Shown here in pieces: positions 30,501 to 52,453 of a stretch of 64,000 nt of DNA. Source of the DNA: Liolophura sinensis (lineage: Eukaryota > Mollusca > Polyplacophora > Chitonida > Chitonidae); NCBI RefSeq assembly GCF_032854445.1, contig NC_088300.1, positions 70,284,984 through 70,348,983 on the forward strand, given 5' to 3'. Position numbers and translations under genes: made by a program. Below the pieces are notes generated by a model that did no database searches, was not told the origin of the DNA, and was given only the letters and a program-made list of their open reading frames with translations. Numbering within the stretch: the stretch's first letter is position 1; each line of letters starts with the position of its first letter.

Positions 30501-33500
30501 TACATCTGTAGAAGCCTTTTGAATGATCAGTTCTTTGTGGGGTACTGTTCTACTATATATTCTCTATTTTCAAAGCTTTAAACACGAGTTTTGAGCTTTG
30601 AAAGTTGCTTTTGGAAGCTTTTTAAACTTTTTTTTTAAATTTTGAAAATAAATTTTAAGCTTTAAAAATAAATCAAAAAGCTTTAAAAATTCAGAGTAAA
30701 TAGCACAATAGAGTCACATAATTCTGCTCTATGCATTGTTTTATTGTGGTGGACAAGTTTTAGGATGGACTGTAGTTTATGACATCTAACACGGCAGAGC
30801 ATCACAGCAGGTTTATTGTTATGTTTGCATATGAATACACTTTCAAGACTAGAAACAATTGTCTTCAGCTTCTTAAATGCAATAATAATAACGTATAATG
30901 ATATGTTTATTTTATCCAAGTTAAAATTTATATCTTTACAATGAAACCGTTCCTCCCCAATACTTTCACAAAACATTTTATAGTACCTGTGTATAAAACA
31001 AATGACGTGTACTTCAGTGTCGCATCAAAATAAAGAATAAATATATTAACACAACACTAAAAACAATACCTCATGTATTCTTTAAATTTTAAAGCTTGAC
31101 CTATTTACATAAGAAAAAAATGTGGAAAGAAGGACTAAGGCCAAGTAAGTGCCGTCCCTGTCATATTCACAACCTACATGTGAAAACAGGGTAGTGGGAC
31201 TGAAAATAATACTGCCATGTGAACTCACTGTCTTGTTTTGTTTCATTCATATGGTAATCCAATGTATGTTCTCTGATTTTCTTCCTGTTGTTAAAATAAA
31301 TCCTTTTCTGTTTTGTGGTATTCTGAATGGATTATCTGTGAGCAAAATTTTATTATAAGCTTCAGGGCTTTATTCTTGTTTTTTAACTGTGCTGTTTTGC
31401 TATATGTTGTCCACACGTACGTATACTCTATGAAATGTATTTGGTAGTTACACATGTACTGTATGATACATGTGTATTTTGAAGTGCACTATTACATCTA
31501 TATATCTAGTATTTTTACATGTGATATACATGCAGTTAATAAGGGTGTCAACATTCTTTATGTGGCATGTTTCATATCTTTTTTGTTTATAATCGAATCA
31601 TAACTGTTCCACAACCCACTAATATATTGATGAAGGCACATTCATTAACTCACTGCCAGGTGACCTAATGCTGTTCCGCCAGGAATGTGAATAACGCTGT
31701 ATAATATAATTCAAAGATGTTTGGCTTCAAGAAGTGTTGGTGCATCCCGGTTATTAGATCATAACTTACTTGTGTTGTGACACCGTAATTCCTCAACCTT
31801 TTCTCATATGAAAAATCAACTTGTGCAATTTATGCACATTTTTGATTTGATTTTTGGAGACACAACTACATTATTTGGATTGGCCAGTTTCAGGGCTTCA
31901 CAATAAGTATAAATTTTTTCAGTCAGCTCAAAATAATGCCTTCACAATATGCTGAATAAACACCTTGCAAATGTGCTATAAGGTTGAAGAATTACAGTAT
32001 ATACATGTAGGTTTGAGTGCATCTACCTGTAATCTACAAGACATCAGCCATGATGGAGCATTGGTGCTATGTAAACCTTCTACAAGTACATCTACTTGTG
32101 TATACATGTATGTTCTTGGACTCGCCTTCTGTTTTCCTGGCTAGTGTACAAAACCAGCTTTGAGCTAGATGGCTGTGTTGATGATCTGATGGCTATACAT
32201 GTATTTGGTCTGGTTTGTAGTGTTCTCTAGGAGGTTTCCCAGGGATGTGTTTTCCCTGGTATAATAACAACAAACAGCAGGTTTGTACTGCGCGATTATC
32301 AAATACTGCACAATGTGTCTGTCTGCACACTCCACACCAGTCCACAGTCTGCTTTAAACTAAAGTCCATGCAGGTCACTTGGTCTGCCATGAGTTATCTA
32401 CCTCATGTATACTGTGTTTTTCTCGTGTGTAGCGTGACCAAAATTGTAGTATTCAAACTCCTGTACATTGTTAACTAGTAAATCACCATTTCAAATCACC
32501 TTTGAATAATCAGTGAGAAAATGTCACATGTACAGCCGAATACACATTTCAAGAATGTAACCAGTGATGAAAAAAAACAAGAAGAGCATCATCCCCACGA
32601 ACAAAACGAACAACGATCGTGTCGTCCTATAAAGCTGTAGGTTTGCTTGTTCCAGCTAAGAGTTAAGGTACATGGAGGTTGTTTAAGGAAGCATTGTAGC
32701 CAGTCAGGTGATCATGCCCACAGAAATCAGTCCCTTTTCTCTTTATGTCCCTTTGAGGACAGGTACAGAAAGTACACTGACCATATTTCATACCTCTTCA
32801 TTATGCAAGATTGCAGGGGAAAATGAGCTCAATGAAGGCCACTAATACTGATGATTCTGCACATTGATGTACACCTCCCCTCCCCCCCGTCCCCCCCTCA
32901 GCTGACTACTATTAGGACTGAGCTGTATTCACAGTGTAGTATAACGAAAGGAAATCTAATATCAAAGCCACTCTCTCGATTTCCATAATTTCTTTCATCT
33001 TCATCAACAGATGTCACTGTTATTGTAACATCAGTATCATCTCAGTCTTCTACAAATGGCTTGGCTTTGACTGGATCAATAGTTTATCATCAGCTACAAG
33101 ATGAGTCAATAGTTGTATTAAAGGTTGTGGTCAACCAGACAACATGTTTTTAAGCTTAACAGAATTGGAAAGTGTAATCATGTTAACTCATAGCCAAGAT
33201 TTCATTTCCATCTCATTCTCAGACTACTTGTATAATAGATTTCATGTGTCTGTTTTGCTCTTGTCCTATGATAGTGTGCACATCCTATAAGCTCAGTAGA
33301 TAGATGCTTCCCGCTCTGTGTCCATGGCCGTTCACCACAGCTAAAGCCAATTGAACATGCATGTATTTAACCCTATCACATTGTCCATGTACCTGTAAAT
33401 CATGTATCAGTTATTCCATACAGGTATAATACCACCTTTACCTAAGCAAACAGTCATATTACTACGCCCTAATTTATTAATATAGTAACAGTCGTGATTT

Positions 33501-36500
33501 TCACATTTTACTGCTGTTGCCATTTTGATTTAATACTATAATGGAACCATATAAAAGGATAGATTTGTTTAGAGTAATTTTTTTTCAGACAATGTTCTTC
33601 TTTTCATTTCATTGAATATTATAAACATTTGTGTGACATGCACATGTGCTGGGCAATTACGTGAACTTATATCAACCACCACTAGCTCTTTTTAATGACC
33701 ACTTGTGTGTCAATGCAGAGATGTGGCTAGAAGATTTTCGATTTTAATCAGACTGTGGACTTGAATCAGACTGTAGACTGTGTGTTGCAAAAACTTCCTG
33801 ATGCCTTGAATACAGTGCTTTAAGTGAATTTTGTAAATGAACATAGTTTCTTTTCAGTTTTATTTATGATTTCCTTTTAGTAACGAGTAAACCTGGTTGC
33901 CTCACAGCAGCTGATTTTGTTTTCTGACTGCATCTTTCTGGGTTCATGTATTTATTTATTATTTCTTAATTGCTTATGTCGGCTTTGTGTGGAAAGGATT
34001 TGTGTTCTTAAATCTGGTTGCTATTTCCTCAAAGTTTTTATAAGTGTCATTCACTTCTCTGAAAATGCTTTCAGTCTTTTCACGGTGTGCATATAAATGG
34101 CTTCTGTCCTAATGTTTAATTGGGAAATAAGCTGCATTTTTATTTTTTAAGCTGCAATTTTTTTTTTTTTTTGAACAGAATGGTGTGGTGCATTGACTTG
34201 TTTTGTTCTTGTCCTGTGCACTTTTTTTGAGGTGTTATGATATCATCATCACATTGTTTTTGCTGAACATGTGTACCTAATTACTCATCCCTCTTGTACA
34301 TCCTGTATCTGTTTATCACCACTGATATGGTTATTAGCTTTTTGTTATCGGCTTTTGTTATCAGATATTACAACCTGTCATGTAACATATTAAGAATAAA
34401 TATATGTGTAGCCTTAACATGTACTAGCTATTTAATGTTAAACCTTTGAATTCTATTTTGTGTCTTTTTCTACTAAATGTAGATGTATCTCTCTTCACTG
34501 ATATGGCACAGTGGCAGTGTTCTTGTTATTTATGTACACATCTAGGTATACATGTACAACAGTCATTACTATCATTTTCTATCTGACGGGTACACCTTTA
34601 TGGCCCTCCCTCCATGCTTCTTTGAATGTTTCACTTTTCGTCTGGTAAAACATACACATCCTAAAATTAACTTATTTTGATATTTTTTAAGGTTTTTGCT
34701 ATCACAGTCGAAATAATTATCCTTTTTTGTAATTGTTGACATTATATATCCATGTATGATTATGATGATGAATTTTGTCTCTGATCTAAATTAATTGTTT
34801 AGCACTGTTTTTTTTTTTTGTTCTGTGGAAGTTTTAACTGAGTAGTGTATGTTTTTTTTTTGTATTTAACAGTAATTTGTAAAGAAACGTTCTCAGGACT
34901 TTAAGCATATTAAGGTTACTTTATGACCTGTATAATTTCTCCTCGCATTGCTTTAGCAGGACTCTGGGTCTATGTCAAGGAGGAATGAGGTGAACTTCGG
35001 AAAATTTTACAACACAAGTTATCTAAAGGAGAGTACTACGGGTTACCTGAAGCGACCAGCCTCAAATCCCACCCAGGCTCAGCGATCCCCCAACTTCGCT
35101 AGACCAGGTCAGTTTTACTAATTGCTTGCTACCATGATATGTTTTTTTTTTTTTTTTTTTTCCTTTTCTCTTTTTTACTCATACAAGCATCATCAGAATC
35201 CATCTGTTGTGAGATAGTCTGGGTTTCACATCCATCATGTCTTGGCACTTGTGTTGGATGTAGGCATACACATATGTCCATGATACAGTTATTGACTCTT
35301 GTCTCTCAAGGATTCCTGGCCTGTAGTATTCGCTTGCTCTACATTTGAACTAAGGCTCATTTGTAGTTAATATCATGTAAGGGATGATGCCATGCCAGGC
35401 CAGCAGTGGGTAAAGCCTTCAACCAGAAAGCACCCCTAAGGGCAGGAGGCTTTGATCTCCCTTCCTTAGGGGCTGTTTTGTCTCCCCTGTCCCCCATTTC
35501 ATCTCCTTTCATTAGTTGGCACTCTGCCTTTCTATGTGTAGATGATTATGAGGCCAGTAATATTCTGTTGACCTGTGTAATTGGATTCCCACAGAGTAGC
35601 AGGGGAAGATGTGCTATGCAGATGTAACTTCATGTTATCTGGCAAGCTCCAAACACAAAAATACATCTATAGGGTAGCTGTAATAAAAAATAATGATGTT
35701 TTAATACATTACAGTGTGAAAGTATTAACAGTGTTATGTTGCTTTCTATGGTGAACACAGCTTGTGTTTCTGTAAGTCTAGTTATATGCAAATGTGCAAG
35801 TACAATGCATCATAATGCATGGCTTATCATTTTGTATTTGTGGATTATGAAGGAATATGAAACTGCTTTTCTTATGAAGTATTTAAAATTTGATTGTTCA
35901 CGTTTCTTAATATATAGGCCTATATATACATGTAGTTCAAGGAAACTTTTGGAATCAGGATTGAAAAATAGTTAACACATGTTGGATGAAAAAAGCTGTT
36001 CCTCAGATTCATGTCAGTTTTTGTTTCTGTATTATCATAATTAATGAAGTATATTTCCCTTCAGAAAATTTCACATATTCCATGGAGCCACCAACATGGA
36101 TGAAGCATAAGAAAGGTATATACAGGATAAACGCCTGAAGTTTTTTTGATTTGTTTTATACAAGTCACATGATTACAAAGAATGTTAAATTCATGTTGAC
36201 TCAATATTTCAACATTTTATATTGCCAGCATCTGAAGATGACTAAGGTTGAAAAACACATAAGCATGACCCTTGTCTCTCCAACATAAATAAATTATTAG
36301 GTAGTTAAATGTCAAAATGTAAATGTTAAACAGTCTTGTTGTGCTTTATTAGTAATTTGCTGAGGAACACCAGCAATTGTACATTAATTTAAAGGTATTG
36401 TAAATCTCCATTGCCTTTGTGTACAGGAGTTATCTCCCTTGATTTCCATCTTAAACTTGAATTTCTGTTTTTTTTTTACAGGGATGAGTGCATTAGGTAG

Positions 36501-39500
36501 GTATCAACCTACCTGTCACCAGACTCGAAAACCTGTTTTAATGATTACATTATATAAGTCAAAATATTAATAAGTGGAAGACTATAAAAGCTAGCTTTGT
36601 TCATCCAAGCTGGGACATAACAGTTAGGCAAAAGTTTGGCAAGAAGTTTTACTAGTTAATTTAATGTCTTTGTAATTTGCCTCCTGCAATTTGCTTATAA
36701 TTTGGAGCACCGCTCTCAATGTTAAAACTGGCCTCGATGGCACAGCTGGTAGAGTGTCCGTGTCGGGAGCAGTAGATTCAGGGTCAATCCTGGGTTGGGT
36801 CACACCTAAGACCTTTAAAAAAGAGGAATTTGTAACTTCCTCGCTTGACGTTCACCATAAAGGAGATAGTGCAACAACTTGTTGACCTGTATCAGTATAA
36901 TGGCTCGGATGGGGTGGCTTACTTGCCTTCGGTAAGTCGTCTCAGAGAAGCAGCACCAAAAGAGTCGTCATATGACTGAAAAATTGTTAAATCCCAAGCA
37001 CTCACTCACTCACTCAATGTTCAAGGGGTTTTGGTGACAAAAAGTAATGACTGGTATTCATGGGTCTGTTTTTGTCATGTCACCTTTGTTGAGATTACCT
37101 GTACTTCAGCAGTGTGGTGTGCATATAGGTATGTCACATGAGAAAATCCATCAGTAACTTGTCCAGGGCCTTTGTGTACTCTGGGTGCCCCTCCACCCAT
37201 AATACTTACTGCAGTTGCACCGGAGAAAAATATTTGAGTTTGGCATTAAACAGCAATACGAAGTTCATGAGTTTAATTTGGAGCTAATTTACACAGTATT
37301 ATGCTCCTTTGATATTCTTATTCTGTTTATTTCTTAGCTCTGTATTACCACTGTATTCATGAAAGATACCTATCAATATGAGGGGTTGTTGCTCCATTAC
37401 ATAATCCAGTGTTCTGTCTCTTAGTTAGTTTTGGTGGAGGCAAAATACTGTGTTAGTTTTGGTGACTTTTATCAGTTTGTGGAGGCATTACACAGCATAT
37501 GCTGTTGTGTTTTAGCATCCGGGCAGGGTAAGAAGGTGGTGAAGGTACCTGCCACCTCTCCTGTTGACCTGAAGAACGAAGAGCCTGTAAAGATGAGCAT
37601 GTACCCGTCAGCCAGACCTCCACAGCCGAAAGAGATTGCCAAGATAGATAGGGAGGACTGGCCCGGACCCCCCTCACCTGCTGCTCTCCTACCTGAAATA
37701 TGTATGTATACACTGGGTTTCTTAGGACTTTTTTGATCTCATTTCATTTGAAATATTGGGTAAGTCAGAAAAGAAATGAATATCTTAAACTTGAACTTAT
37801 GCACTCGCATTTCCTGTACTAGTATGAAAAGTATTTATAGGTAATCACATTTTTCTCTTCTTTTTGTTTTCATCTGTCCTGGCAGAAGAGATGTGTTATT
37901 TGTGTATGTTTTGTGTGTGCAGTACGGGAGCGTAAGAAGAGTCGTGGCTTGGCAGATGATGACGACGAGGAAGAGATGCTGCCGAAGGAGAACCCTCAGG
38001 TGAAGCGGGAGATTGAGGAGCTATCTAAACTAGACGCCAAGTCCTCCATAGCCCAGGCCATCCTCAAGAGCCTTGAGGATAGGAAGGTGGTTGTTCCCTC
38101 CCCACTCGATCCATGGAAGGCCTCACGTGTCCCCAGTGCCAGCTATGAGCCCCGCTACAGGACCCGCTATCAATCTCCTATGTTTGCCTGTAAGAGCCCT
38201 CTTTAATTGGACCCTTTTAATATGACACCAGATGTTGTGATACCCAAGTATAAACAACATAGACTAATTCTTAGACTAATATGAAAGTGAAATTTAACAT
38301 GATGTTTATGTGTATGTATTATTTTAATATGAAGGTAAAACTTTATTATGGGATCTCAGGTCTTCACAGAGACTATAACTGTGTAAATCTTTATACGATG
38401 TTTGGTATGTTTCAGCTCCATCACGATTCCTGGACAGGCCACGTCCCCGCTCTTGGGATGATAGTGATCTCCGTGGTTACAGGTCTTTATCTGCCTCTAG
38501 GTTCCCTAATTATCCAGGTAAGACTGCTCAATATATTACCATGTTTTCTATCAACTTAACATTTATGCCAGCAATTGCAAGGGAAGAAACTCATATTTGG
38601 CAGTACAGTAAGGTTAATTTTACAGAATAGATATTCAAACAGTTATGGGATCATTATACCCAAAGGTGATGCCTTCTTTCGTTTAACTGACTGCCCCTTT
38701 TTTTTCTTTTCCATGTAAAAGATTTAAGTTTATGATAGTATTCTGATGTATTAATGAGTATATAAATTATTCCACAGCTCCTAAACCAGGTTATGGAGGC
38801 TGGACCCCCAAGTCTGTTACATTACCATTACAGGGTGCTTATGGGGGACATTTGGACTATGTGAGTGACATGTCGAATTATCTCCCCTTAATGCTACAAT
38901 ACTATAGGTGTAGAAATCATAAAACCTAAATATTGGTTGAAGGCCAGCAAATGACATGGATTTGATAGGAAAATCAGTAAACTTATATTTTTCAACACTT
39001 TTCTAAAGAAAAAGTGAGCCAAGAGTTGTGAAATGAAGAGAGTAAAATGGAAAAGAAATAAAATTAACATAGAAAAGTGTAAGCAATCGTAAAATTTTCA
39101 CTTGAACAGTTCACTATCAAACTTCACTGCGCAGTATTTTTAAAGCTGATGTTATTCATGACATGTTTACCTTTTCTCCCTTGCAGAGGTTTTTCGAATT
39201 TGATGACAGCGATCAGCCAGATGAGAAGAGAAGATCAACACGTATGTGACAGTACCTCATCTCTTTTGCCCAGTAACCTGAAGATTTTCAAATTCACTGA
39301 TTTATTACACACTTTTAGACTGATGTTAATATTGATGTCTCTGAGTAGAAAAAATTTGTTCTACCCTTTAGACAAAATTGGTCTGTAGATAAATCTGGTA
39401 ATACTGTGTCGTCTTCCACTGTTCTGTTATTCTAATACTCATTTGTACCTTTTCCTTTAGATGCTTCTTCTTCATCAATGAGCACTGAGGGTGGGTCTAA

Positions 39501-41675
39501 GGTAAGGACAGATGTTAATATTTTATAATGAACAATGGATCCTGCCTTGCAATAAACACATATCTGATTATACTGAGTAAACTTAAAGCAGATCATTTGG
39601 ATAAAATATTATATAGAATTGGTAGATAGACTGCGCAAAATCTAACATATAGAGAGTTGCTCCTATGGATTCCACTTTGTTGTAATAGTGTTTCTGTTAG
39701 AAAAATAGAAAACGTTTTTACATGAACACACTTAATATACCCAAATTAAGAGGTTCAAGTTATGCAGGTTATTTGAATAAAATTAAATTGATACTGTGAT
39801 GAGAAAACTGTAGATTGTATTAAAACAATGCCAAAGAAAAAATGACTATTAACAACATACAAGTATAGAAGCCATTGTTTTGAATCTCAGCTACACATTT
39901 TTTCTGTTTGTTTTTTCAGAAACCCCCTAGCATATTTGAGGGCACTGGACCAGGAGTATCTCTACTGAAGATTCAGAGGAGCACCTGGCACACAGAAACT
40001 GAACCTCCTGTACGTTTGCTGACTTATCATACTGTATTTCTCTTATCATGCTACAATACATTCATCAAGTTACTTTACACTTACTTACCACGTTCACTTT
40101 CACTGACTCATCACACTGTATTACTTTTATCATGCTACAGTACATTCATCAACTTACTTACAGTGCTCACTTTCACTGACTCATCACACTGTATTACTTT
40201 TATCATGCTACAGTACATTCATCAACTTACTTACAGTGTTCACTTTCACTGACTCATCACACTGTATTACTTTTATCATGCTGCAGTACATTCATCAACT
40301 TACTTACAGTGCTCACTTTCACTGACTCATCACACTGTATTACTTTTATCATGCTACAGTACATTCATCAACTTACTTACAGTGTTCGCTTTCACTGACT
40401 CATCACAGTGTATTACTTTTATCATGCTACAGTACATTCATCAACTTACTTACAGTGCTCACTTTCACTGACTTATCACACTGTATTACTTTTATCATGC
40501 TACAGTACATTCATCAACTTACTTACAGTGCTCACTTTCACTGACTTATCACAATGTATTACTTTTATCATGCTACAGTACATTCATCAACTTACTTACA
40601 GTGCTCACTTTCACTGACTCATCACACTGTATTACTTTTATCATGCTACAGTACATTCATCAACTTACTTACAGTGTTCACTTTCACTGACTCATCACAC
40701 TGTATTACTTTTATCATGCTATAATACATTATCCTTTCTTTATATTCAGCTATGTGCATTATTCTTAACTAGTCCAGGATAATACTGGGAAGCCAAATGT
40801 AATGTCTGTTTATTTTGGTTTAAATAGGACATAACTCAAAGCCAATGTCTCTGTCTTGAATATAAAACTTTGTCAATCTGATGGGAATCATGATCTGAAA
40901 CCTAAGACATACATGAGCAACAACGTGTGCAACAACGTGTGCAACAACGTGTGCAACAACGTGTGCAACAACGTGTGCAACAACTTTTTGATTTACTTTC
41001 TGTTTCAGGTTTACACTTACGAGAAATTGAAGATAACAAATTTTGATCTGCCAAGGGATGTTGATATAAATAGATTAGAGGTGAGTTCAGAGGTTGAATT
41101 CCATATTTCTGTGCTTATAAAATTAATTGTTTTGTTGATTTACACCATTAAATCAACAATATTTGCTTAGTGTGCTAACAAGACTTCACAAAGCAAAGCC
41201 TCATATGACAAGGTAAGGAAAAAACTGCAGTAAAATTCATGAATACAGTGTAGATGTATTAAAAAAAAAAATTTTAGGTATTCAAGTGGGTTTGGTTTAC
41301 AAAATGGTTTTGGAAACTTTTCTGATAACATTATCGAATAATATTGATCCATTTTTGACCAGGCAGTATAATGAATTATTGCTACTGACCATTAGCCGTT
41401 ACCCTCTTCACGTGCATTTCAGCTTCTTCAGATGGCAGGTTGCTTTACCACTGGTGTATGTAAAGTGACCTACAATTTAAAACACCAATGAAGTAAATTA
41501 TATTTATTCAATTCAGCAGTGTTTTCTTGGCATTAACTTTGTTTATGTGCCTTATTTGCAGATACATCTTTCTAAGGAGGAATTTGAAGACATTTTCAAA
41601 ATGAGTAGAGAGGAGTTTTACAAAATGGCCGAGTGGAAAAGAAATGATATAAAAAGGCGTAATAATCTTTACTGA
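525..41675 (+). CDS. ABLIM: abLIM/dematin-family actin-binding protein (UNC-115-like), spliced, LIM-less form with C-terminal villin headpiece
   Basis: Spliced coding region. Proposed exons: 525-552, 26191-26676, 27851-27921, 29218-29289, optional 30463-30507, 34960-35107 (or from 34957), 36065-36115, 36482-36496, 37516-37701, 37923-38189, 38416-38517, 38778-38860, 39187-39241, 39461-39501, 39920-40009, 41009-41080, optional 41171-41212, 41562-41675. Every junction has AG/GT borders and matching phase. The product is 655 residues with both cassettes, 626 without. The identity rests on the C-terminal headpiece (LPRDVD..RLE, then HLSKEEF, EWKR, final LY) and on linker motifs typical of abLIM/dematin: SYLKE, DREDWPGPP, PLDPWKASR and RYRTRYQSP. 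Such proteins bundle or anchor F-actin and act downstream of Rac in axon guidance and cell shape. No LIM zinc finger (CxxC..HxxC) exon was recognised; a LIM-containing form could splice into the exon at 26191 from outside the window. Exons were assembled by eye, and further small exons in the long introns cannot be excluded. Confidence 0.85.
1085..1760. repeat. degenerate tandem repeat, higher-order unit about 134 bp
   Basis: Short blocks such as ATGTATATAAAATACGTGTCC, CACCAATATAAAGTTCTCTG and CATCAATATGTCTGAAGTAT recur in the same order. CACCAATATAAAG starts at 1181 and again at 1315, giving a 134-bp spacing; a third, shorter version begins near 1509. Later blocks (to about 1760) retain only ATATGTCTTCAGTA and similar pieces, so the array decays rightwards. 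It is not coding: the open frame on the opposite strand simply reads the repeat. Confidence 0.6.
2590..2812 (+). repeat. degenerate tRNA-derived SINE
   Basis: A B-box-like TTCGAATCC near 2632 is followed by a body and by a tail reading AAATATTTTAAAATACGACGTAAAGCACCAACC and AATAAATA. The tail is a mutated version of the SINE tail at 11.6 kb. The head is degenerate and no target-site duplication was found. Confidence 0.45.
3478..3690 (-). repeat. SINE-like element, minus orientation
   Basis: Read on the minus strand, a tRNA-like head containing GGGTTCAAAACC (B-box-like, near 3630-3640) precedes a body with GGTGGTTTACTCCGGTTTCCTC, a string that resembles the SINE body at 5.4 kb. The 63-codon minus frame in this interval is therefore repeat sequence, not a gene. 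Confidence 0.45.
3985..4258. mobile_element. fold-back / MITE-like inverted repeat
   Basis: Two arms of about 95 bases are imperfect reverse complements. The left arm contains CAAACATTTGAATTCTAAGG, GGGCTTTACGGACC and GGAACTCTGACGTCAC; the right arm contains GATGTCAGAGTTCC, CATAAAGTCCACC and GTATTCAAATATTTCAG in the mirrored order. A loop of roughly 80 bases separates them. There is no coding capacity. Length and structure fit a non-autonomous DNA transposon or fold-back element; no target duplication was established. Confidence 0.65.
5251..5480 (+). repeat. tRNA-derived SINE, second body type
   Basis: Contains a perfect B box, GGTTCGAATCC, at 5320-5330. It continues with GGTGAAGGGTGGTGATTTAC and GGCACCCCGGTTCCCTCCAACC, a body shared in reverse with the 3.5 kb element. 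The A box is not clear and the ends are approximate. Confidence 0.5.
5951..6035 (+). repeat. SINE 3' fragment
   Basis: Only the 3' end of the common SINE remains: CACCATAAAGCTGG, then GTAAGTGAAATATTCTTAAG and TACGGCGTAAAACAC, ending in AAATAAATAA. It looks like a 5'-truncated insertion. Confidence 0.65.
6045..6272. repeat. short irregular tandem repeat (ATTCGAATAACGAATGTG)
   Basis: Four to five imperfect copies of a unit reading ATTCGAATAACGAATGTG, then GTGCTAGCACGATATTC, spaced about 40-55 bases apart. Each unit contains the small palindrome ATTCGAAT. Confidence 0.6.
11344..11613 (+). mobile_element. full-length tRNA-derived SINE with target-site duplication
   Basis: A 270-bp element flanked by the perfect 13-bp direct repeat TATTGTACATGTG (11331-11343 and 11614-11626). 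The tRNA-like head carries an A box (TGGCTCATTTGG, about 11354) and a B box (GAGTTCAAGTC, about 11422). The body has GGCTTCCTCTCTGGCC and CCACCATAATGCTGG, and the tail GTGAAATATTCTTGAGTAC then AAATAAATAAAT. This is the best-preserved copy in the window and a reference for the others. Open frames of up to 99 codons across it are not genes. Confidence 0.9.
14970..15040 (+). repeat. SINE tail fragment
   Basis: ATTATTGAGGGCAGCGTAAAACACTAATCAAATTAATAAATTAATAA matches the 3' end of the 11.3 kb SINE. A second, more decayed tail (ATTCTTGAGTAGGATGTTTAAAACTAATC) follows at about 15155-15200. Confidence 0.5.
16650..16933 (-). mobile_element. full-length tRNA-derived SINE, minus orientation
   Basis: The same family as the copy at 11.3 kb, reversed. 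The tail (TTTATTTATTTGATTGGTGT) is at the low end and the tRNA-like head (CTGAGCCATGGAGGCC) at the high end. It is flanked by the 11-bp direct repeat GAATGTACATG (16639-16649 and 16934-16944). The B box in reverse reads CTTGAACTCAC. Confidence 0.88.
17936..18040 (+). repeat. SINE 3' fragment
   Basis: GGCTCTGCCCGGCTTCCTCC, CACCACAATGCTTGCCGTC and TATAAGTGAAATATTTGTAC correspond to the last 100 bases of the common SINE. The head is absent. Confidence 0.65.
19322..19507. mobile_element. MITE-like element, copy 1
   Basis: Starts TAATTCCTCAACCTTTTCAC and shares with the copies at 20.2 and 31.8 kb the internal strings TTTGCACATTTTTAATTTG, TTCAGGGCTTCACAA and GCTTGAATAAACACCTTG. The right end is decayed (AAATGTTGTCCTTACAGT). 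Confidence 0.65.
20176..20392. mobile_element. MITE-like element, copy 2
   Basis: Begins TTGTTCCTCAACCTTTTCAC and ends CAGGTTGAAAAATTGCAGT, an imperfect terminal inversion of the start. The inside matches copies 1 and 3. It lies 670 bases from copy 1 in the same orientation. Confidence 0.7.
22194..22222 (+). other. G-quadruplex motif
   Basis: Five runs of three to five G separated by one to three bases (GGGGGTGAGGGTGGGG, then TAGGGGTAGGGG). It fits the G3+N1-7 consensus on the + strand, which is the sense strand of the abLIM intron. Confidence 0.7.
25205..25462 (+). repeat. tRNA-derived SINE, diverged head
   Basis: B box GAGTTCGAGTCC at about 25272, body CTCTCCGGCCGTGCATGGGA, GGTTTCCTCCCACCATAATG and tail GTGAAATATTCTTGAGCATG. 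The first 40 bases no longer match the family head. It lies about 0.7 kb upstream of the abLIM exon at 26191. Confidence 0.75.
26191..26676 (+). CDS. ABLIM: abLIM exon: basic, Pro/Ser/Thr-rich linker
   Basis: Acceptor CTTTTTATAG, donor A|GTAAGT at 26677, phase 1 at both ends. It encodes about 162 residues beginning GAKQGKHRRED: Lys/Arg-rich with many SP and TP sites, then an Asn/Thr-rich stretch. This low-complexity composition is what lies between the LIM repeats and the dematin-homology part in abLIM proteins. No fold is visible. Frames on the opposite strand here are shadows. Confidence 0.85.
26677..27850 (+). other. abLIM intron
   Basis: No exon, repeat or RNA gene seen. It contains one duplicated pentadecamer-scale repeat (TATCTATTGTACTTTTTAAT / TATCTATTGTACCTTTTAAT near 26900-26940). 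Confidence 0.5.
27851..27921 (+). CDS. ABLIM: abLIM exon (acidic, Ser-rich)
   Basis: Acceptor GTCTTTAG, donor GTAGGT at 27922; phase 1 to 0. It encodes SPGSTTDQSQGESDDEG then LSPTEEQ. The join to the previous exon restores Ser (A+GT). Confidence 0.85.
27922..29217 (+). other. abLIM intron
   Basis: No exon or repeat recognised; the minus-strand frames here have no domain. Confidence 0.45.
29218..29289 (+). CDS. ABLIM: abLIM exon (Ser-rich, 24 residues)
   Basis: Acceptor TTGCACTTTTCAG and donor GTATGT; 72 nt, phase 0 at both ends, encoding FRSLSPSLSLLSRSTT then SSMGRFML. Being symmetrical, it can be skipped without a frameshift. Confidence 0.75.
30463..30507 (+). CDS. candidate 45-nt abLIM cassette exon
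   Basis: A strong pyrimidine tract (TCATCTCTCTGTTCTCTTGG) precedes TATACAG, followed by 45 nt encoding ASGDYMQHSPLSSTS, then a weak GTAGAA donor. It is phase 0 at both ends, so it fits between the exons at 29218 and 34960 with or without inclusion. Without the donor the frame stops four codons later. Unproven. Confidence 0.45.
31784..31999. mobile_element. MITE-like element, copy 3 (best ends)
   Basis: Starts ACCGTAATTCCTCAACCTT and ends AAGGTTGAAGAATTACAGT; these are terminal inverted repeats matching at 17 of 19 positions. It is 216 bp with no coding capacity. The interior matches the copies at 19.3 and 20.2 kb (TTTATGCACATTTTTGATTTG, TTTCAGGGCTTCACAA). Confidence 0.75.
32873..32899 (-). 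other. C-rich tract / minus-strand G-quadruplex motif
   Basis: ACCTCCCCTCCCCCCCGTCC continues into a seven-base C run. On the minus strand this gives G7, G7 and G4 runs, able to form a quadruplex on the template strand of the abLIM gene. Confidence 0.6.
34960..35107 (+). CDS. ABLIM: abLIM exon with SYLKE motif; tandem NAGNAG acceptor
   Basis: Donor G|GTCAGT. The acceptor reads CTTTAGCAG, so splicing may occur at 34957 (adds Gln) or 34960. The peptide runs DSGSMSRRNEVNFGKFY, then NTSYLKESTTGYLKR and PNFARP. SYLKE followed by a second LKR is characteristic of the abLIM anchoring region (Pfam AbLIM_anchor would be the family to test). Phase 0 to 1. Confidence 0.9.
35108..36064 (+). other. abLIM intron
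   Basis: A pure T run of about 20 bases at 35141-35161, then AT-rich sequence. No exon or element recognised. Confidence 0.45.
36065..36115 (+). CDS. ABLIM: abLIM exon (17 residues)
   Basis: Acceptor TTTCCCTTCAG, donor G|GTATAT; phase 1 to 1, encoding ENFTYSMEPPTWMKHKK. Symmetrical, hence skippable in frame. Confidence 0.85.
36482..36496 (+). CDS. ABLIM: 15-nt abLIM microexon
   Basis: A T9 tract and ACAG precede GGATGAGTGCATTAG, followed by GTAGGTAGGT. Phase 1 at both ends; it adds G-MSAL, and its last G joins the next exon to make Ala. The strong flanking sites and exact phase make it credible despite its size. Confidence 0.7.
36724..37012 (+). mobile_element. tRNA-derived SINE with (ACTC)n tail
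   Basis: A second SINE family. A box TGGCACAGCTGG (36738-36749), B box GGGTCAATCCT (36781-36791), a body of about 200 bases, and the tail CACTCACTCACTCACTCA. It is flanked by the 9-bp direct repeat CTCAATGTT (36715-36723 and 37013-37021). The 64-codon frame over its head is not a gene. Confidence 0.82.
37190..37258 (+). repeat. possible SINE tail remnant
   Basis: CACCCATAATACTTACTGC and AAAAATATTTGAGTTTGGCATTAAACAGCAA loosely resemble the common SINE 3' end (CACCATAATG...GAAATATT...GTAAAACACCAA). Confidence 0.35.
37516..37701 (+). CDS. ABLIM: abLIM exon with DREDWPGPP motif
   Basis: Acceptor GTGTTTTAG, donor T|GTATGT; phase 1 to 1. It begins ASGQGKKVVKVPATSP and ends with KIDREDWPGPPSPAALLPEI, a signature of abLIM/dematin linkers. 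It is Pro-rich and likely unstructured. Confidence 0.9.
37923..38189 (+). CDS. ABLIM: abLIM exon: acidic/coiled segment and PLDPWKASR motif
   Basis: Acceptor TGTGTGTGCAG, donor T|GTAAGA; phase 1 to 1. It encodes RERKKSRGLADDDDEEE, a helical EIEELSKLDAKSSIAQAILK stretch, then PLDPWKASRVPSASYEP and RYRTRYQSP. The last two are strong abLIM family markers. The join to the next exon gives FASPSR, also typical. Confidence 0.92.
38416..38517 (+). CDS. ABLIM: abLIM exon (Arg/Ser-rich)
   Basis: Acceptor GTATGTTTCAG, donor G|GTAAGA; phase 1 to 1. Encodes SPSRFLDRPRPRSWDDSD then LRGYRSLSASRFPNYP. Confidence 0.88.
38778..38860 (+). CDS. ABLIM: abLIM exon (Gly/Tyr/Pro-rich)
   Basis: Acceptor TATTCCACAG, donor GTGAGT; phase 1 to 0. 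Encodes APKPGYGGWTPKSVTLPL then QGAYGGHLDY. Confidence 0.85.
39187..39241 (+). CDS. ABLIM: abLIM exon (acidic then basic)
   Basis: Acceptor TCTCCCTTGCAG, donor C|GTATGT; phase 0 to 1. Encodes RFFEFDDSDQPDEKRRST. Confidence 0.82.
39461..39501 (+). CDS. ABLIM: abLIM small exon (Ser-rich, 41 nt)
   Basis: Acceptor CCTTTTCCTTTAG, donor AAG|GTAAGG; phase 1 to 0. Encodes the second part of His, then ASSSSMSTEGGSK. Confidence 0.82.
39920..40009 (+). CDS. ABLIM: abLIM exon preceding the headpiece
   Basis: Acceptor GTTTTTTCAG, donor CCT|GTACGT; phase 0 to 0. Encodes KPPSIFEGTGPGVSLLKIQ then RSTWHTETEPP. The continuing open frame beyond 40009 is the 73-bp repeat, not coding. Confidence 0.85.
40018..40730. 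repeat. 73-bp minisatellite in abLIM intron
   Basis: The unit CACTGACTCATCACACTGTA...CAGTGCTCACTTT starts at 40101, 40174, 40247, 40320, 40393, 40466, 40539, 40612 and 40685 (last one partial), an exact 73-bp period. A more diverged copy with a 10-bp insertion starts at 40018, only nine bases inside the intron donor. Copies differ at few positions. Each unit contains CTTACTTACAG and CATGCTACAG, which look like splice acceptors. Confidence 0.95.
40917..40984. repeat. 12-bp tandem repeat (GCAACAACGTGT)
   Basis: Five perfect copies plus GCAACAAC, ending 24 bases before the acceptor of the first headpiece exon, so it fills the branch-point region. Confidence 0.95.
41009..41080 (+). CDS. ABLIM: abLIM villin headpiece, N-terminal subdomain
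   Basis: Acceptor CTTTCTGTTTCAG, donor GTGAGT; 72 nt, phase 0 to 0. Encodes VYTYEKLKITNFDLP then RDVDINRLE. The Y..L pattern and LPxDVDxxRLE are the headpiece N-terminal subdomain. It must join the exon at 41562, directly or through the 42-nt cassette. Confidence 0.95.
41171..41212 (+). CDS. ABLIM: 42-nt cassette exon inside the headpiece
   Basis: Acceptor ATTTGCTTAG, strong donor AAG|GTAAGG; phase 0 to 0. Encodes CANKTSQSKASYDK. Inclusion puts 14 residues between RLE and IHLS, at the hinge between the two headpiece subdomains. Skipping restores the canonical domain, so this is probably alternative. Dematin has a comparable 22-residue headpiece insert in its 52-kDa form. Confidence 0.65.
41562..41675 (+). 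CDS. ABLIM: abLIM last coding exon: headpiece C-terminal subdomain and stop
   Basis: Acceptor GTGCCTTATTTGCAG; 37 codons and TGA at 41673-41675. The three core phenylalanines (EEF, DIF, EEF), the cap Trp (EWKR) and basic residues near the end are all present. The family normally ends LF; here LY. This 35-residue subdomain is the main F-actin contact in villin-type headpieces. Confidence 0.97.
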   Translation: MHLSKEEFEDIFKMSREEFYKMAEWKRNDIKRRNNLY

Positions 41676-44600
41676 GGACAGTTTTCTACGTATACCAGAA
41701 ATAAATCGGGGCTAAAGTCAAGAACATATCCAGTCATTTTGTCAGTTGGAGCAAGAGAGCTAAGAAGTACTCGTCCAACAACTGATACACGTTATATGTG
41801 CTGATATTGGTGACAATTTTGAGAGCTGACTGCATGTGTAGATACTGGCTACTTTAGGCTAAAAACCTGCGTTACAAGTCCTCTGTATACACACCAGATA
41901 CTGTACATGACAGGTAATCTACAATCCTGGTCACCAGTCAGATGTATCCTGTCAGCTGTGAGAGATACTTCTACGTGTATCATGGAAGTGCTCCACTACT
42001 TGGCTTTTTTCGTCAGTGCGATTCATGTTAATCACACCTTTTTAAACTGTGGTGAAACAAATAGTGAAATATCATAAGGATATAGTTGCCCGTAGTTTTG
42101 CCATAGTTAATATGTTGTATACGTGGATCACTGTGTTCATTGAAGCCTGTAGACCTATATTACTGCTGGTATGTAAATGTTGGCGTGAGACAAGGCTGTT
42201 TTCTGAGCCATCCACTGTTTTGGTATTATGTATATGTCTAAAGTAGAAATGGAAATGGGCTGTTCAAGATGCTATGAAGTTTGTGGTAGATGGGGATGGC
42301 GTCTGTGGACTTACGATGTTTAGATTATCTCATCTTTGTAAACAAATGTTGACAAGTGGATTAAATTTGGTGCAAACATGTACATAGCTTTTATTGTGAG
42401 AAAGTGATTAAGTAGGAAATAGACCACAGTCACTAGGCATTGTCTTGTTCCTCTCATATTTATTTTTATCACAATGTGCAGGAACACTTTATTTATGTTT
42501 TGCCTAGTGCCTTGCTTTCAGAATTATTCTTCCACTTAAATATGCAAATTAAATTCAAAATGGCATTCAATATTGATTGTACCTATTTTCTTGCACACGG
42601 TGTTTTTGTGAGTACTACTTTTAAAGAGTAACTAAAGGGTTATGGTTATATTAATAAGAACAAAGCCATGGAAATCATGATTCTTTTCCATTAGTGGACT
42701 GAGAGGAATTGCCTGCACACTATAATTTCGTTTTGTTTTCTTCTTTTTTTGTGAGCTATGAAAGTTACCTCATAATGCTTGTAAACAAAAAGCATTATTA
42801 TTTATATGATCATTGTTTTTCTTTTCACATAGTATCACTTTTAACTGTACAGTGTATGTAGTGATTTGCTTTTAGATATAAAATACTGGTTGTAAGATAC
42901 AGTGCAATTGGTAAAGCCATGTCCAGTATGTTTTGTACTCTTTTTTTTTTTTAGAATTATGGACTCATTGTTTGTGATTTGCTTTGGGTTTTTTTTCTCT
43001 GTTTTAAGCTAATTTATTATTTTTTTAAGATGGGAAGAATCTGGACGTGTTAAACATGAATTCAATTTAAGGGCAATCTTTCAAGAGTATTGAGCACTCT
43101 TGCATATTATTTTTGTTATGCTGTCATTTATACCTTTGCATTAGTGAAAGAAATCAACCATTTCAAGAGCATTTTCATGGTAATGACTCTACCCCAGTGA
43201 AGTGCCACTGAAAATGCGCAGAGATTATGTGGAAACATTGTAGAAGTTCGCCAAGGTCTAATGTTAACGGAGAAATACCTGTTGACCAGAAATACAGCTG
43301 GATGATAAATTACCTTAAATAAATGTACATGTATATGTGAATACACAATAATATTGTATGGCATAATATTGGAGCCAGATAATGTGAGGATAGATGTGAA
43401 GGTAGATACAGGTTATTATACATATCGGGTATGATATAAAAGTTTTGTTTCATTAGTTAATCTTGTTGATGATGTTGTTTTGTAAATCCTTAATCGTAAG
43501 TTGTTTGTTTTTTTTTTCTGAATGTGTTCCAGCATGGGTAGAGACTTATGCTGCTGGGTTTTAGTTTGGGGAGTAAGTGCATGCTTCATTGTAACATGAT
43601 AGTTTATAGCTCTGGCTGCTTACGACTTGCTGTAGATCACTCCAAAGCATTACATCTTAAGATGGGCATTTTTTCACCATGGAGACTGTACATGGAATTC
43701 TTAGGCTGCATGTAAAAGCGTATCTTAAAAATTATTCATGTGTGTCGAAAAAAAAATAACTCACTTTCACATGCATATATAGGGAAAATGTGCATTTCTT
43801 GAATTTTACTTTCTACAACTGATGACTGAATAATGTGTGGGATGTGCAACATTTTTGAGATCATGAAATATTATTTGAACAGAAATGTATTCTGTTTCGT
43901 TTGGACCAACATCAAACACGAGGCAGCTTTGGCTGGTTATAAGTCATGTGGAGAATATATTTCATTTGTTTTGTATTCCCATGTTTGCAAGTTTCTAGCA
44001 GCTTGGTATAAAACACTGTCGTGTGTATATTAATACTGGAGGAATTGTCTTCACCTGCATGTGGATGAAGAAAACAGTGGGAACTGGAAACGGTTTACTC
44101 CAGGAGTTGGCATGAGACATTTTCTCTTGTTTTAATTTTAATAATTGGATGCTTAAAACATGCTTATTTTAATGCAGACAGTTGTGAAAAAATCAGCTGT
44201 TTTCTTTTTCACTTGTACCTTGGCAGTCATTGTTGGCTGATATTGGCCAGTTCACAAAGTTCTTATTTTGGGTTGGATTGGAATGCAGCCCTATAGTGTT
44301 ATACAGAATATGTTTACAGTAAGTTATATTGTGTTCTCTTTGTTATTTTGATGACAGTTGCATTACGCATTTACATTTTCCATCACTGACATTTTTGGTT
44401 CGTCAAGGGCATTATGTAGATTTCATGATTTACTCTTCAGCTGTGTATGATATTGTCAGTTCTGGTGATCAGGGCATCAAGATTTGGTAGCAGGCTCTTA
44501 ACTGAAATACCTGTATGACATCTACATACATATACAGCCTGGATGAATGATTTCATAGTTCTTTGTCAATAGTCAGGAAAAAGGAAAAGTTTAAAACTTC

Positions 44601-47900: not shown

Positions 47901-50089
47901 GAGTTCTGACTTAAAGCTCTTCCCTTAAAGACAAGGACCACACTTAAATGAAGTATATATCGGATGGAAGACCATTAAAAAGTGTCCAGGGAAATAGTTG
48001 GATTTACTTTTTTTAGAATTTTTCTAACCTAGTAAAATTATATTAAAAGATCAGGTTCTATGGTGGTGTGTTGTGGCCAAAAAGGTATCAAGGTAGCCAA
48101 ACCTTATGTGACATAACCCACCCCAATGTGGTCAGAAAAGGTCACCACAGAATACATGTAACATATTCAAATGCATTTTACTGGGTTAAACGAATTGTAA
48201 AAAAAATAAATCCCGCTATTTTCCTGGACAGTTTTAATGCTGTTTCCCTGATACATATTTGATTTCAGTGTTTTCTTTGCCTTTAAGGACTAAATCCACA
48301 TTGACATTTGTAATACTGGTTACCTTGATGAGAACAGTCACAGTCTGAATGCTACAAGTCACATAAAACTGGGCGTGTCAAAGTTATTTCCAAACATACA
48401 TGTACTAAGTGTACACCAGATAATAACCAAAGTCACAGCACACAGCAAAGTACACCTCTCTTGGATGTGAAAACCTCTACCAAAACAAATACAACAAAGT
48501 TGCCACAGCAGTCTTCATTTAATAAATTTTGACTTCTTTTCTTATAATTAACAATCCTGTGTTTTTGACTTGGGGAGAATACTTTCACTGCAAAAATGTT
48601 TTTGCTGAATAGAAATGCAACACACCAGGTATGATTTGGCACTGTGCAAAGTATAAACAACATGTGGGAAGGAACCTGCGATGGACAGTCCTGCACAATT
48701 AACAAGTGATCTGAGTAAGTTACACATACAGAGCTTTTCTTTTCTCAGCTGTGTTTGAGGAGGTTACATAGAGTACATAAACGCAGACTCTACAACTTAG
48801 CAGTTTATTTTTCTAATCTGCTCATTCCACCTCTCATTTAACTGAAATTAACACAACATAAAAGTTCTTCTTTTTGCCATTTCCCCGCTGCACTGTGCTC
48901 GATGTAAGCACCAAACTGAAATCGTTGTTTTTATGGGCACGGTAGTTACACTATAAATACAAAAAAACCTTCCATTCACTCCTTTTACTACTTGTAGGAA
49001 TCATGGTTATTGAGGTACAATGATTTATCTATGACCATCTCTAAGATTTTGTGCCACCTATTTTATTACAGGTCCAATTCTACATTCAATATAATGATGT
49101 GCGACAGATTTTAATTGCAAATATGTTTATGAATGTTCTACCTATATGTGAACATAAACTGCCGGTGCATGTGGCATGTTACATGGTAACGCCATTCAAA
49201 GTGTATAACACTATGCTAATTGCAAACATTCTATCCAAATGGTTAAAAACATTTGATTCACATTTTTAAATTTCCTTAAGAAGCTTTTGATACACGTAAG
49301 CACATTTTGACACACAGTTAACATGAACAAACAGTTATTTAAAACTATGCTATATTACAACCTGTAACAAACTCAGCGTTCTTAACCACATATATATCTT
49401 TTACAACAGGGTATGAAGTTGAAAATACCATTGCAGATAAAAATTTTACTTTACATGTACATAAATGTTGGAGCTTGTGGATTATGGAAATACAAATAAA
49501 AGAAGACTACTCTTCAGAGATTTCTTACGAATCACTGAAAACAGATTTTGTCATGGTTTAACCTAGCCACAGGGTTTTGAAAACATTCAAGAAAAAAATA
49601 CATAAAAAGGTAATAAAGGATTTCAGGAACGACCCATTATTATCAGTGTCATAACATTCTACACAAATTATATACATTACAAAGTCAAAAAAAAAGCATC
49701 AGTAAAAAAATGAATTACATTTAATAACAAAGCAAAGAAATCATATAACAAAAAGAAAAAAAAAATTTACAATTGTACAGGTAACTAGCCATACTTCAAC
49801 CAAAATTGCATAATCAAAAGACCAGCTCTTTAAATGTTACACAATTCAAGCCTACATTATGAGCATCTTTGATGAATTGTATATGAAATATAATAACATT
49901 AATATGCGATATTATGTTACTGAAGTCATCATAAAATGATAAATAGCATCTCTTAAAAATAACAGCAATGTTTGTAGGTATCTAAATATAACAATTTTAG
50001 CACACTACAATTACATACATGTACAGCTGTGCAAAAGCTGAAGTGGCAGAGGCCAGCCTGGTGGAAATCTTACATCATGATCTGTCTAG

Positions 50090-50663
50090 TGTCACACAGC
50101 TTTACACCACCTACCAGCCAGGTGGCACACAGCTTTACACCACCAGCCAGCCAGGTGGCACACAGCTCTACACCACCAGCCAGTCAGGTGGCACACAGCT
50201 TTACACCACCAGCCAGTCAGGTGGCACACAACTTTACACCACCAGCCAGTCAGGTGTCACACAGCTTTACACCACCAGCCAGCCAAGTGTCACACAGCTT
50301 TACACCACCAGCCAGCCAGGTGTCACACAGCTTTACCCCACCAGCCAACCAGTGTCACACAGCTCTACACCACCAGCCAGTCAGGTGTCACACAGCTCTA
50401 CACCACCAGCCAGCCAGGTGTCACACAGCTTTACCCCACCAGCCAGTCAGGTGTCACACAGCTTTGCACCACCAGCCAGTCAGGTGTCACACAGCTTTTA
50501 CACCACCAGCCGGTCAGGTGTCACACAGCTTTACACCACCAGCCAGCCAGGTGTCATACAATTTTGTAACACCAGCTAACCAGGTGTCACACAACTTTAC
50601 AACACCAGCAAGCCAGGTGCCACACAACTTTACAACACTAGCCAGCCAGGTGTCACACAACTT
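50090..50663. repeat. 33-bp minisatellite, about 17 copies
   Basis: The unit TGTCACACAGCTTTACACCACCAGCCAGCCAGG recurs every 33 bases (50090, 50123, 50156 and so on), with a few one-base indels. Because the unit is a multiple of three and lacks stops, two + strand frames stay open for 186 and 218 codons (SHSFTPPASQV and TQLYTTSQPGV repeats). It sits antisense to the DOCK transcript, downstream of its stop codon, so a structural or regulatory role would be in RNA, if any. Confidence 0.95.
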
Positions 50664-52453
50664 TATTACAAATTTTCATGAATAAAATCTCAATTCAAAA
50701 CCTGTTCTTTCTCCATGTAATCCTCTCCTTTAACTCCATTTAATACATGCAACAGTGATTATATCTATGTCAGAGCAATGTGATCCAATTACCAAAAAAA
50801 AACAGGTAGTCCATACATCCTGCCCTTTTTCTATAAAAAACTGATGTGTTTACACTTCCCTTAGATGACCAAGGCTTTTATAGATAAAGCCCTATTTATA
50901 TGCATCATATTTAATTTAAGAATTAGATGCCGGCAAAATGCCTGATACATGTATATTCCACTGGAACACAGTAGCCTATTAACCACACTACAACAGGTAA
51001 AACTCTAAATAACTCCATAGCCATAGCATTACTATACACATGTATAAAAACTCGTGTTCACAAGGGTCAGGAACACAAGTGACATTTACCACAAAGAATA
51101 AGATAACAGTCATCTTAGCACAACTATTAAATACAGTTCTATTAGTTAAGGCTGAATAGAATCTCCTCTTTAAAAAGACAAATTTAATAGGCTTTACTGG
51201 ATAGAGCTGTTTTTTACTCAGATTAAGAAACTTGTTCTGTTCAAGTCATCCTTCCATACTCAGACTGCACAGAATTCAATCTTTCAGTTGGATAGGATTC
51301 ATTGATAGATTCTATAATAGTAACTCAAAATGACTTCAACTTTCTTAGACTTTACAAAAATTGTATTACAAAACTTATTCCAACCGAATTTCTCAGATCC
51401 TAGTTCACTCATATCAGAAGGTAAAATATCCTTGGACTGAATTCAAAGGCAATGAAACAGAGCACACTGCCTATCTTCATCATTAGGAAATTGCCGATAT
51501 ACTTCACACAGGCTAAAAACATTTATACAAAGAATTCTATTCAGCACTGAAAATTTCACACAGACAAATAAGATTTAACTATGTACGTAGTGAGGGTGAA
51601 GTTAAGACCAGTCTCGGTACTCTTGTGTCCTGTTTATGACTCAACAAGCACTGGCTTTGCATCATTTTTAATAATTTTGACATAAAAACAGATGATATAA
51701 AATTAAACTTATTTAATTCTTCTCTTTAATAACATATTGTGTAGACAATAGCACAACCCAGTAGGTAGTTTTCACTAATTTTGGCAAGGCCAGATCAATT
51801 TTTGAGCATTACAAGTGCTTAGTGGTTTCCACCTCATTAAAAAGAAAATGACTTAAATTCCAAAAATAGTTTTGTTCTAAATATAAAGCACTGAAGAGGA
51901 GTATTATATGTCTTCACCAACAAGAAATCTTTTTGTCTTACAACCTTTAGAACAACCAATATGTGACTTTCTGTGATGCACAGGAGAGGCCATTTAACAT
52001 TGATCTGAACAAGTCAGCCATCTTGAAACTTTCTCTGCAACCACAACATTCATCTGTCACAACTTTTTTCAAGTGATTTTAGGATCAAGAAATGAAATGC
52101 ATTCCTTAATTTTATGACTTGATATTCACTTGTCTTTGATACCCAAGAAAGGTATTAAAACAAGTTCCTGGGTAAAAATTCTGCTTCTGCGGAGTTACTA
52201 GTAAATGGTGAGTGTAATACAAACGTGCCTGTAACAATCTGCTGCTCTCTGTGCCATCATTTTACAACCATCACGCCACAATTCACAAAGAGTCATGTGT
52301 CCACTGTACAACTGAAGCGGGACTACAGCACGCTACAGAAGGCACTGACGGCTCACAACAACAACAACAGCATAAGCAGCATTGACGACGACACAGGCAA
52401 AGTTTTCATGACGTGGGAGTGTATGAGATGAGGTTTTCTGACTACCTCGTTGA

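What the first reader, a model, noticed from the sequence alone, without database searches (positions are those of the whole stretch)
41171..41212. 42-nt cassette exon placed between the two subdomains of the villin headpiece
Canonical headpiece sequence is restored when 41080 joins 41562 directly (RLE then IHLSKEEF). Between them is a phase 0-0 stretch with AG and a strong GTAAGG donor, encoding CANKTSQSKASYDK. Inclusion would separate the N-terminal subdomain from the actin-binding helical subdomain, so splicing could act as an actin-affinity switch. Mammalian dematin is known to have a headpiece insertion of 22 residues in one subunit; this may be an independent or ancestral counterpart in an invertebrate abLIM.
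Basis: partly seen in the sequence, partly recalled or inferred. Interest (0 to 1): 0.75.

Follow-up and report, generated by a model that had tools for sequence, protein, structure and literature searches.

The report
Possible optional exon splitting villin headpiece
An animal actin-binding gene carries, inside the intron that cuts its actin-binding end domain in two, a short exon-like stretch that would add 14 residues in frame if used; its exit splice site is strong and its entry splice site weak, and no RNA or related genome was available to show that it is used.

Summary
Skipping it gives the canonical headpiece (59.5 bits to abLIM2 2l3x against 43.8 with the insert). The gene is abLIM/dematin-type; no LIM domain was found in the window or 100 kb upstream.

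Exon evidence is mixed. For: a strong donor AAG|GTAAGG and exon-like low T (0 of 357 windows of the same intron as low). Against: the lowest acceptor score of ten, a 90-nt upstream intron, and six other open phase-0 pairs in the same intron with higher summed scores. Some traits resemble published eMIC-dependent neural exons, others do not.

The dematin parallel fails: the 405-residue dematin chain has no insert at this junction.

I commit to a genuine, default-skipped cassette exon at 0.42; chance pseudoexon 0.41; latent or alternative donor 0.12. RNA-seq junctions or related genomes would decide; neither was reachable.

The parts
41009..41080 (+). exon with the N-terminal headpiece subdomain, VYTYEKLKITNFDLPRDVDINRLE, phase 0 at both ends
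   Evidence: acceptor 10.6, donor GAG|gtgagt 11.8; aligns to abLIM2 and dematin headpieces
41081..41170 (+). putative upstream intron of the inclusion form, 90 nt; no AG between those at 41091 and 41169; in-frame TAG at 41168-41170
   Evidence: the eight introns of the skip form are 219-999 nt
41164..41166 (+). UGC close to the weak acceptor
   Evidence: UGC near the 3' splice site is reported as enriched at eMIC exons (PMC8797185, passages)
41171..41212 (+). candidate 42-nt cassette exon, CANKTSQSKASYDK, phase 0-0
   Evidence: open frame, donor 11.7 and acceptor -1.7, T 0.19; the whole intron matches only itself in the genome search
41183..41212 (+). alternative 30-nt version from the next AG (acceptor 0.9), also open and phase 0-0
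41213..41561 (+). putative downstream intron of the inclusion form, 349 nt; holds AGs that score higher than the one at 41171 (for example 41363 and 41423, both 7.7)
41562..41675 (+). last coding exon, C-terminal headpiece subdomain and stop, IHLSKEEF...RRNNLY
   Evidence: Pfam VHP PF02209; acceptor 9.4
37527..40009 (+). seven upstream exons of the same gene tail (37527-37701, 37923-38189, 38416-38517, 38778-38860, 39187-39241, 39461-39501, 39920-40009); boundaries are the best-scoring sites near frame-guided guesses, not transcript-based
   Evidence: scores; joined frame open; matches dematin 8iah_5 residues 168-259 and 301-405

Best explanation
The default transcript joins 41080 to 41562 and makes a normal villin-type headpiece on an abLIM/dematin-type protein. 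The 42-nt segment is an optional cassette exon, skipped by default because its acceptor is weak and included only where a splicing activator compensates, in the manner of short neural exons that depend on the eMIC domain of Srrm-type factors. Inclusion adds a polar 14-residue loop directly after RLE, between the labile N-terminal subdomain and the self-folding C-terminal helices that touch actin. It would loosen or detach the N-terminal subdomain and so lower or retune actin binding while leaving the actin-contact helix intact. Shown: coordinates, frame, splice-site scores, composition, canonical nature of the skip form. Inferred: that the exon is used, where, and its effect on actin.
For: Open phase 0-0 segment with a donor identical to the gene's own donor at 39501 (11.7). 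T-poor like the exons: 0 of 357 windows of its own intron, 135 of 2739 of all introns, 330 of 630 exon windows. Peptide without F, I, L, M, V or W: 10 of 1326 open intron windows against 9 of 319 coding 14-mers. The pattern AG-free zone of at least 70 nt, UGC within 20 nt, donor of at least 11 and open exon of up to 60 nt occurs once in 328 kb of strand sequence, here; looser settings give 0.0015-0.078 per 481 nt. Very weak 3' splice site, UGC near it, long AG exclusion zone and strong upstream 5' splice site are published traits of eMIC exons (PMC8797185, passages). The insert falls exactly at the subdomain boundary. In plant villin-4 a three-residue change makes the N-terminal subdomain signals vanish at 25 C (restored at 5 C) while the C-terminal ones stay (PMC8553144, passages). 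Named actin contacts lie in the C-terminal helix (PMC12674126, section 8).
Against: Lowest acceptor score of the ten scored; the nine others were picked as best near my guesses, which favours them. Six other open phase-0 pairs of the same intron score higher in sum. The upstream intron of 90 nt would be less than half the shortest other intron of this tail (219 nt). Codon usage is undecided: 95 of 1326 open intron windows score as high and only 11 of 211 held-out exon windows as low. eMIC traits not met: no UCUC or CUCU in the 90 nt before it (read), no long pyrimidine tract (8 of 16), and the only CUAAY of the intron lies inside the segment; fly eMIC exons have weak donors. The pattern settings were chosen after seeing the case. 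No transcript or relative was available.
Confidence: 0.42

Rival explanations
1. Chance pseudoexon: a fortuitous strong donor-like 9-mer beside an ordinary AG and a short open stretch; the whole 481 nt is one constitutive intron and the segment has no role.
For: Open pairs of equal summed score number 0.69-0.95 per 481 nt, and six others in this very intron score higher; acceptor weak; the skip form is what solved headpieces look like; 48% of the 42-nt intron windows of this tail are open in a given frame.
Against: A donor of 11.6 or more is found only 0.005-0.06 times per 481 nt, and the low T content matches exons, not this intron.
Confidence: 0.41
2. Alternative or latent 5' splice site of the preceding exon: splicing from 41212 to 41562 extends exon 41009-41080 by 132 nt, which hold an in-frame TAG at 41168-41170, so the protein would end RLE plus 29 residues and lack the actin-contact helices; or the site is latent and normally suppressed.
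For: The two donors 132 nt apart score alike (11.8 and 11.7), and the weak acceptor is not needed. Precedent: human dematin (EPB49) has a latent donor in intron 12, 284 nt past the authentic one, with three in-frame stops, activated in MCF-7 cells and glial tumours (PMC8996931, passages).
Against: It does not explain why the T-poor stretch lies within 41171-41212, and it makes a truncated protein.
Confidence: 0.12
3. A shorter 30-nt cassette from the AG at 41181-41182 (TSQSKASYDK).
For: Its acceptor scores higher (0.9 against -1.7) and it is also open and phase 0-0.
Against: It lies 12 nt past another AG and has no AG-free zone of its own; scanning usually takes the first AG (recalled).
Confidence: 0.05

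Closest known systems
abLIM / dematin family villin headpiece (abLIM2 2l3x, dematin 1qzp and 8iah_5)
   Same: C-terminal headpiece with RLE-xHLS junction; dematin-homologous region upstream
   Different: 16 of the 17 solved sequences listed cover the junction, and their aligned spans differ from the skip form by 0 or 3 residues, leaving no room for an insert of this size; no LIM found in reach
Dematin 52-kDa subunit, 22-residue insertion (recalled)
   Same: Alternative in-frame extra peptide near a headpiece of the same family
   Different: In the 405-residue chain the headpiece aligns at residues 342-405 without a gap at RLE-RHLS, so its insert is not between the subdomains; recalled location is just before the headpiece
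eMIC-dependent (Srrm234/SRRM4) neural exons
   Same: Short in-frame exon, weak acceptor, UGC near it, long AG exclusion zone, strong upstream donor (PMC8797185, passages)
   Different: 42 nt is longer than a strict microexon (27 nt, recalled); no UCUC tract and no CUAAY branch point upstream; no expression evidence
Latent 5' splice site in human dematin EPB49 intron 12
   Same: Strong intronic donor after an in-frame stop, upstream of headpiece sequence (PMC8996931, passages)
   Different: 284 nt past the authentic site against 132 here; homology of the introns not tested

Membership tests
abLIM/dematin gene family | C-terminal villin headpiece, nearest to abLIM/dematin headpieces | tested here: met
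   Pfam VHP 56.5 bits, cut-off 27; best solved matches abLIM2 2.1e-15 and dematin 3.5e-13
abLIM/dematin gene family | dematin-homologous region before the headpiece | tested here: met
   33.3-bit match of residues 21-112 of the joined tail to dematin 168-259
abLIM/dematin gene family | Pfam AbLIM_anchor PF16182 | tested here: inconclusive
   22.1 bits, below the 29-bit cut-off, and not listed at E up to 1 for the inclusion form; the exon-wise genome search found none, but its control rang nowhere either
abLIM proper | four N-terminal LIM domains | tested here: inconclusive
   none in the window plus 100 kb upstream by a half-motif regex or a profile from 12 LIM loci of this genome (best E 0.21); none of 53 genome matches nearby; exons split by introns or lying further upstream can be missed
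cassette exon | in-frame, open, bounded by AG and GT | tested here: met
cassette exon | transcripts with and without it | not testable with these tools
   no RNA data
cassette exon | conservation in relatives | not testable with these tools
   by their descriptions the collections hold no related animals; scans gave one chance match of 23 residues in a viral contig and none in prokaryote contigs
counterpart of the dematin 22-residue insertion | same position in the protein | tested here: not met
   405-residue dematin is ungapped at the junction
eMIC-dependent exon | weak acceptor, UGC near it, long AG exclusion zone, strong upstream donor | tested here: met
   judged after seeing the case
eMIC-dependent exon | UCUC-rich pyrimidine tract and strong CUAAY branch point | tested here: not met
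   no UCUC or CUCU in 41081-41170 (read); only CUAAY of the intron is at 41175, inside the segment
eMIC-dependent exon | inclusion depends on the eMIC factor in neurons | not testable with these tools
   no expression data

The most novel reading that the evidence does not exclude
A neuron-restricted short exon inserts a polar loop exactly between the two subdomains of an abLIM-type headpiece, uncoupling the labile N-terminal subdomain from the actin-contact helix and so setting actin affinity by splicing, at a position where the solved dematin chain has no insert.
Probability: 0.18. Interest if true: 0.6.

Novelty: new variant of a known kind. Interest (0 to 1): 0.35.

Why it matters
Headpieces are a much-used folding model and a widespread actin-binding end domain. 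A natural insert at the boundary of the two subdomains would be a ready-made test of how far the labile N-terminal half is needed for actin binding, and would show splicing acting inside an otherwise uninterrupted fold of about 60 residues. If it is a pseudoexon, it matters only as a caution against calling exons from a strong donor.

Tried and rejected
Dematin counterpart: rejected on the alignment of the 405-residue chain. Repeat-derived exon: the 481-nt intron matches only itself in the genome (that search skips simple repeats and very common words). Similar cassette beside other headpieces of the genome: one search lists five VHP exons, four were cut out, one of them the window's own; of the three others two (L001, L004) appear to begin at the same phase-0 point and L003 appears to run through it. 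The upstream exons of L001 and L004 were not recognised within 1500 nt, so no insert could be compared; the C8 copy was not fetched. LIM domains: none found within reach (searches covered three forward frames of 27000-41999 and one frame of 14000-26999). Relatives: one 23-residue chance match in an IMG/VR contig; prokaryote contigs gave none.

Literature on a headpiece insert in abLIM or in invertebrates: ten searches, listings only: (20 of 27 shown; 2 of 2; 12 of 12; 15 of 60; 20 of 1546; 10 of 38; 12 of 12; 3 of 3; 10 of 1640), 49 (7 of 8). I saw none on this among those shown; the library lacks most subscription papers. Passages were read in PMC8553144, PMC2885315, PMC12674126 (section 8 whole), PMC3427480, PMC12084633, PMC8797185, PMC6056535, PMC3305314 and PMC8996931. 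The Azim 1995 dematin isoform paper was seen only as a reference; the position of its insert is recalled.

Full report
What is there. The window is C6:70284984-70348983 of a 609-Mb genome. On the + strand I traced a gene tail of nine exons from 37527 to 41675; joined, they stay open to a stop and read GKKVVKVP...RRNNLY. Their boundaries are the best-scoring sites near frame-guided guesses, not transcript-based. The last two encode the two halves of a villin-type headpiece: 41009-41080 the N-terminal subdomain, ending DINRLE, and 41562-41675 the C-terminal one, starting IHLSKEEF. Between them 41171-41212 is bounded by AG and GTAAGG, is 42 nt, open and phase 0-0, and reads CANKTSQSKASYDK.

What the gene is. 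The joined tail matches dematin over two stretches (33.3 and 48.4 bits) and abLIM2 over the headpiece. Pfam gives VHP above its cut-off and AbLIM_anchor below it, the latter only for the skip form, so that match is fragile. No LIM domain was found in the window or in 100 kb upstream with a half-motif regex or with a profile from 12 LIM loci of the same genome (best E 0.21), and none of the 53 LIM matches of the genome search lies nearby; LIM exons split by introns or further upstream could be missed. I therefore call it abLIM/dematin-type. Mammalian abLIM1 is made in forms with and without LIM domains (PMC2885315 and PMC6056535, passages).

The skip form is canonical. Against solved structures the skip form scores 59.5 bits to abLIM2, 52.6 to dematin 1qzp and 47.7 to the 405-residue dematin; the inclusion form scores 43.8, 38.3 and 29.8, and its alignment to abLIM2 opens a gap of the 14 residues after RLE. 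Two of three other headpiece exons cut from this genome appear to start at the same phase-0 point (L001 NFLSDTEF, L004 IHLTEEDF), while L003 appears to read through it.

Is the segment an exon? Splice sites were scored with a consensus matrix recalled from memory. The donor scores 11.7, equal to the gene's own donor at 39501 and close to 11.8 at 41080; the acceptor scores -1.7, below the nine others (3.2-12.8). By pyrimidine count the difference is smaller: 8 of 16 against 9-15, three of the nine having 9. Chance pairs of equal summed score are common (0.69-0.95 per 481 nt; 0.21 of 2000 simulated introns), and in this very intron six other open phase-0 pairs score higher, among them 41183-41212 and 41423-41464; pairs with both scores as high are rarer (0.01-0.07 per 481 nt; 0.0055 of simulations). 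Donors of 11.6 or more occur 0.005-0.06 times per 481 nt; 11 of at least 11.3 lie on the + strand of the window, four of them in this gene tail, this one included. The segment is T-poor like exons: 0 of 357 windows in its intron and 135 of 2739 in all eight introns are as low, against 330 of 630 in exons; the windows overlap, so they are not independent. Codon usage does not decide: 95 of 1326 open intron windows score as high, 11 of 211 held-out exon windows as low. The upstream intron would be 90 nt where the eight introns of the skip form are 219-999 nt.

A regulatory reading. Fly eMIC-dependent neural exons have very weak acceptors, long AG exclusion zones, UGC near the acceptor, UCUC-rich pyrimidine tracts, strong CUAAY branch points, strong upstream donors and short surrounding introns; unlike mammalian ones they also have weak donors (PMC8797185, passages). 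Here there is no AG between those at 41091 and 41169, a UGC at 41164-41166 and an upstream donor of 11.8. That pattern with an open exon of up to 60 nt and a donor of 11 or more occurs once in 328 kb of strand sequence, this one; looser settings give 0.0015-0.078 per 481 nt. The settings were chosen after seeing the case. Not met: there is no UCUC or CUCU in the 90 nt before the segment (read), and the only CUAAY of the intron lies inside the segment.

Likely effect. In actin-bound villin and dematin the contacts named are a Trp, a Lys and the C-terminal Phe of the last helix (PMC12674126, section 8); here the Trp and Lys are kept and the last residue is Tyr. The insert leaves that helix intact. 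The N-terminal subdomain is marginal: in plant villin-4 a three-residue change at its start removes its signals at 25 C, with recovery at 5 C, while those of the C-terminal one stay (PMC8553144, passages). A 14-residue polar insert at the junction should therefore loosen the N-terminal subdomain and change actin binding by degree. In human abLIM1 the headpiece alone did not bind F-actin detectably, unlike that of dematin, and the protein without it did not associate with F-actin either (PMC6056535, passages), so any switch acts on a joint site. This paragraph is inference; no structure of either form was predicted.

The dematin parallel. The 405-residue dematin chain aligns through RLE-RHLS without a gap, its headpiece matching at residues 342-405. 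Its 22-residue insertion, which I recall as lying just before the headpiece, is at another position.

The donor alone. If 41212 is used from exon 41009 without the weak acceptor, the frame meets TAG at 41168-41170 and the product lacks the actin-contact helix. Human dematin has a comparable latent donor in intron 12 that is used in tumour cells (PMC8996931, passages).

Verdict. The cassette reading is barely ahead of a chance pseudoexon (0.42 against 0.41) and is not shown. No RNA and no related animal genome could be searched here.

Noticed in passing
about 40030-40730: Tandem array with a period of 73 nt inside the intron 40010-41008, seen in the sequence and as similar ORFs starting every 73 nt.
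   Followed up: no
about 40920-40985: Short array of a 12-nt unit (caacaacgtgtg, about five copies) close upstream of exon 41009-41080.
   Followed up: no
41423-41464: A second exon-like piece in the same intron, also 42 nt, open and phase 0-0, with a better acceptor (7.7) but a poor donor (3.4); its summed score is higher than that of the candidate.
   Followed up: partly
L003 (C4:1570728-1570817, minus strand): Another headpiece gene whose N-terminal subdomain exon appears to run past the RLE-xxLS point (KLETYLREEEF), so its intron lies elsewhere.
   Followed up: partly
49978-50685: Overlapping ORFs of repeated TQLYTTSQPG / HSFTPPASQV units, a tandem repeat.
   Followed up: no
26130-26777: 215-residue open stretch rich in K, P and T (SPTRESPTKQPPVQV...) that looks like a coding exon of this or a neighbouring gene.
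   Followed up: no
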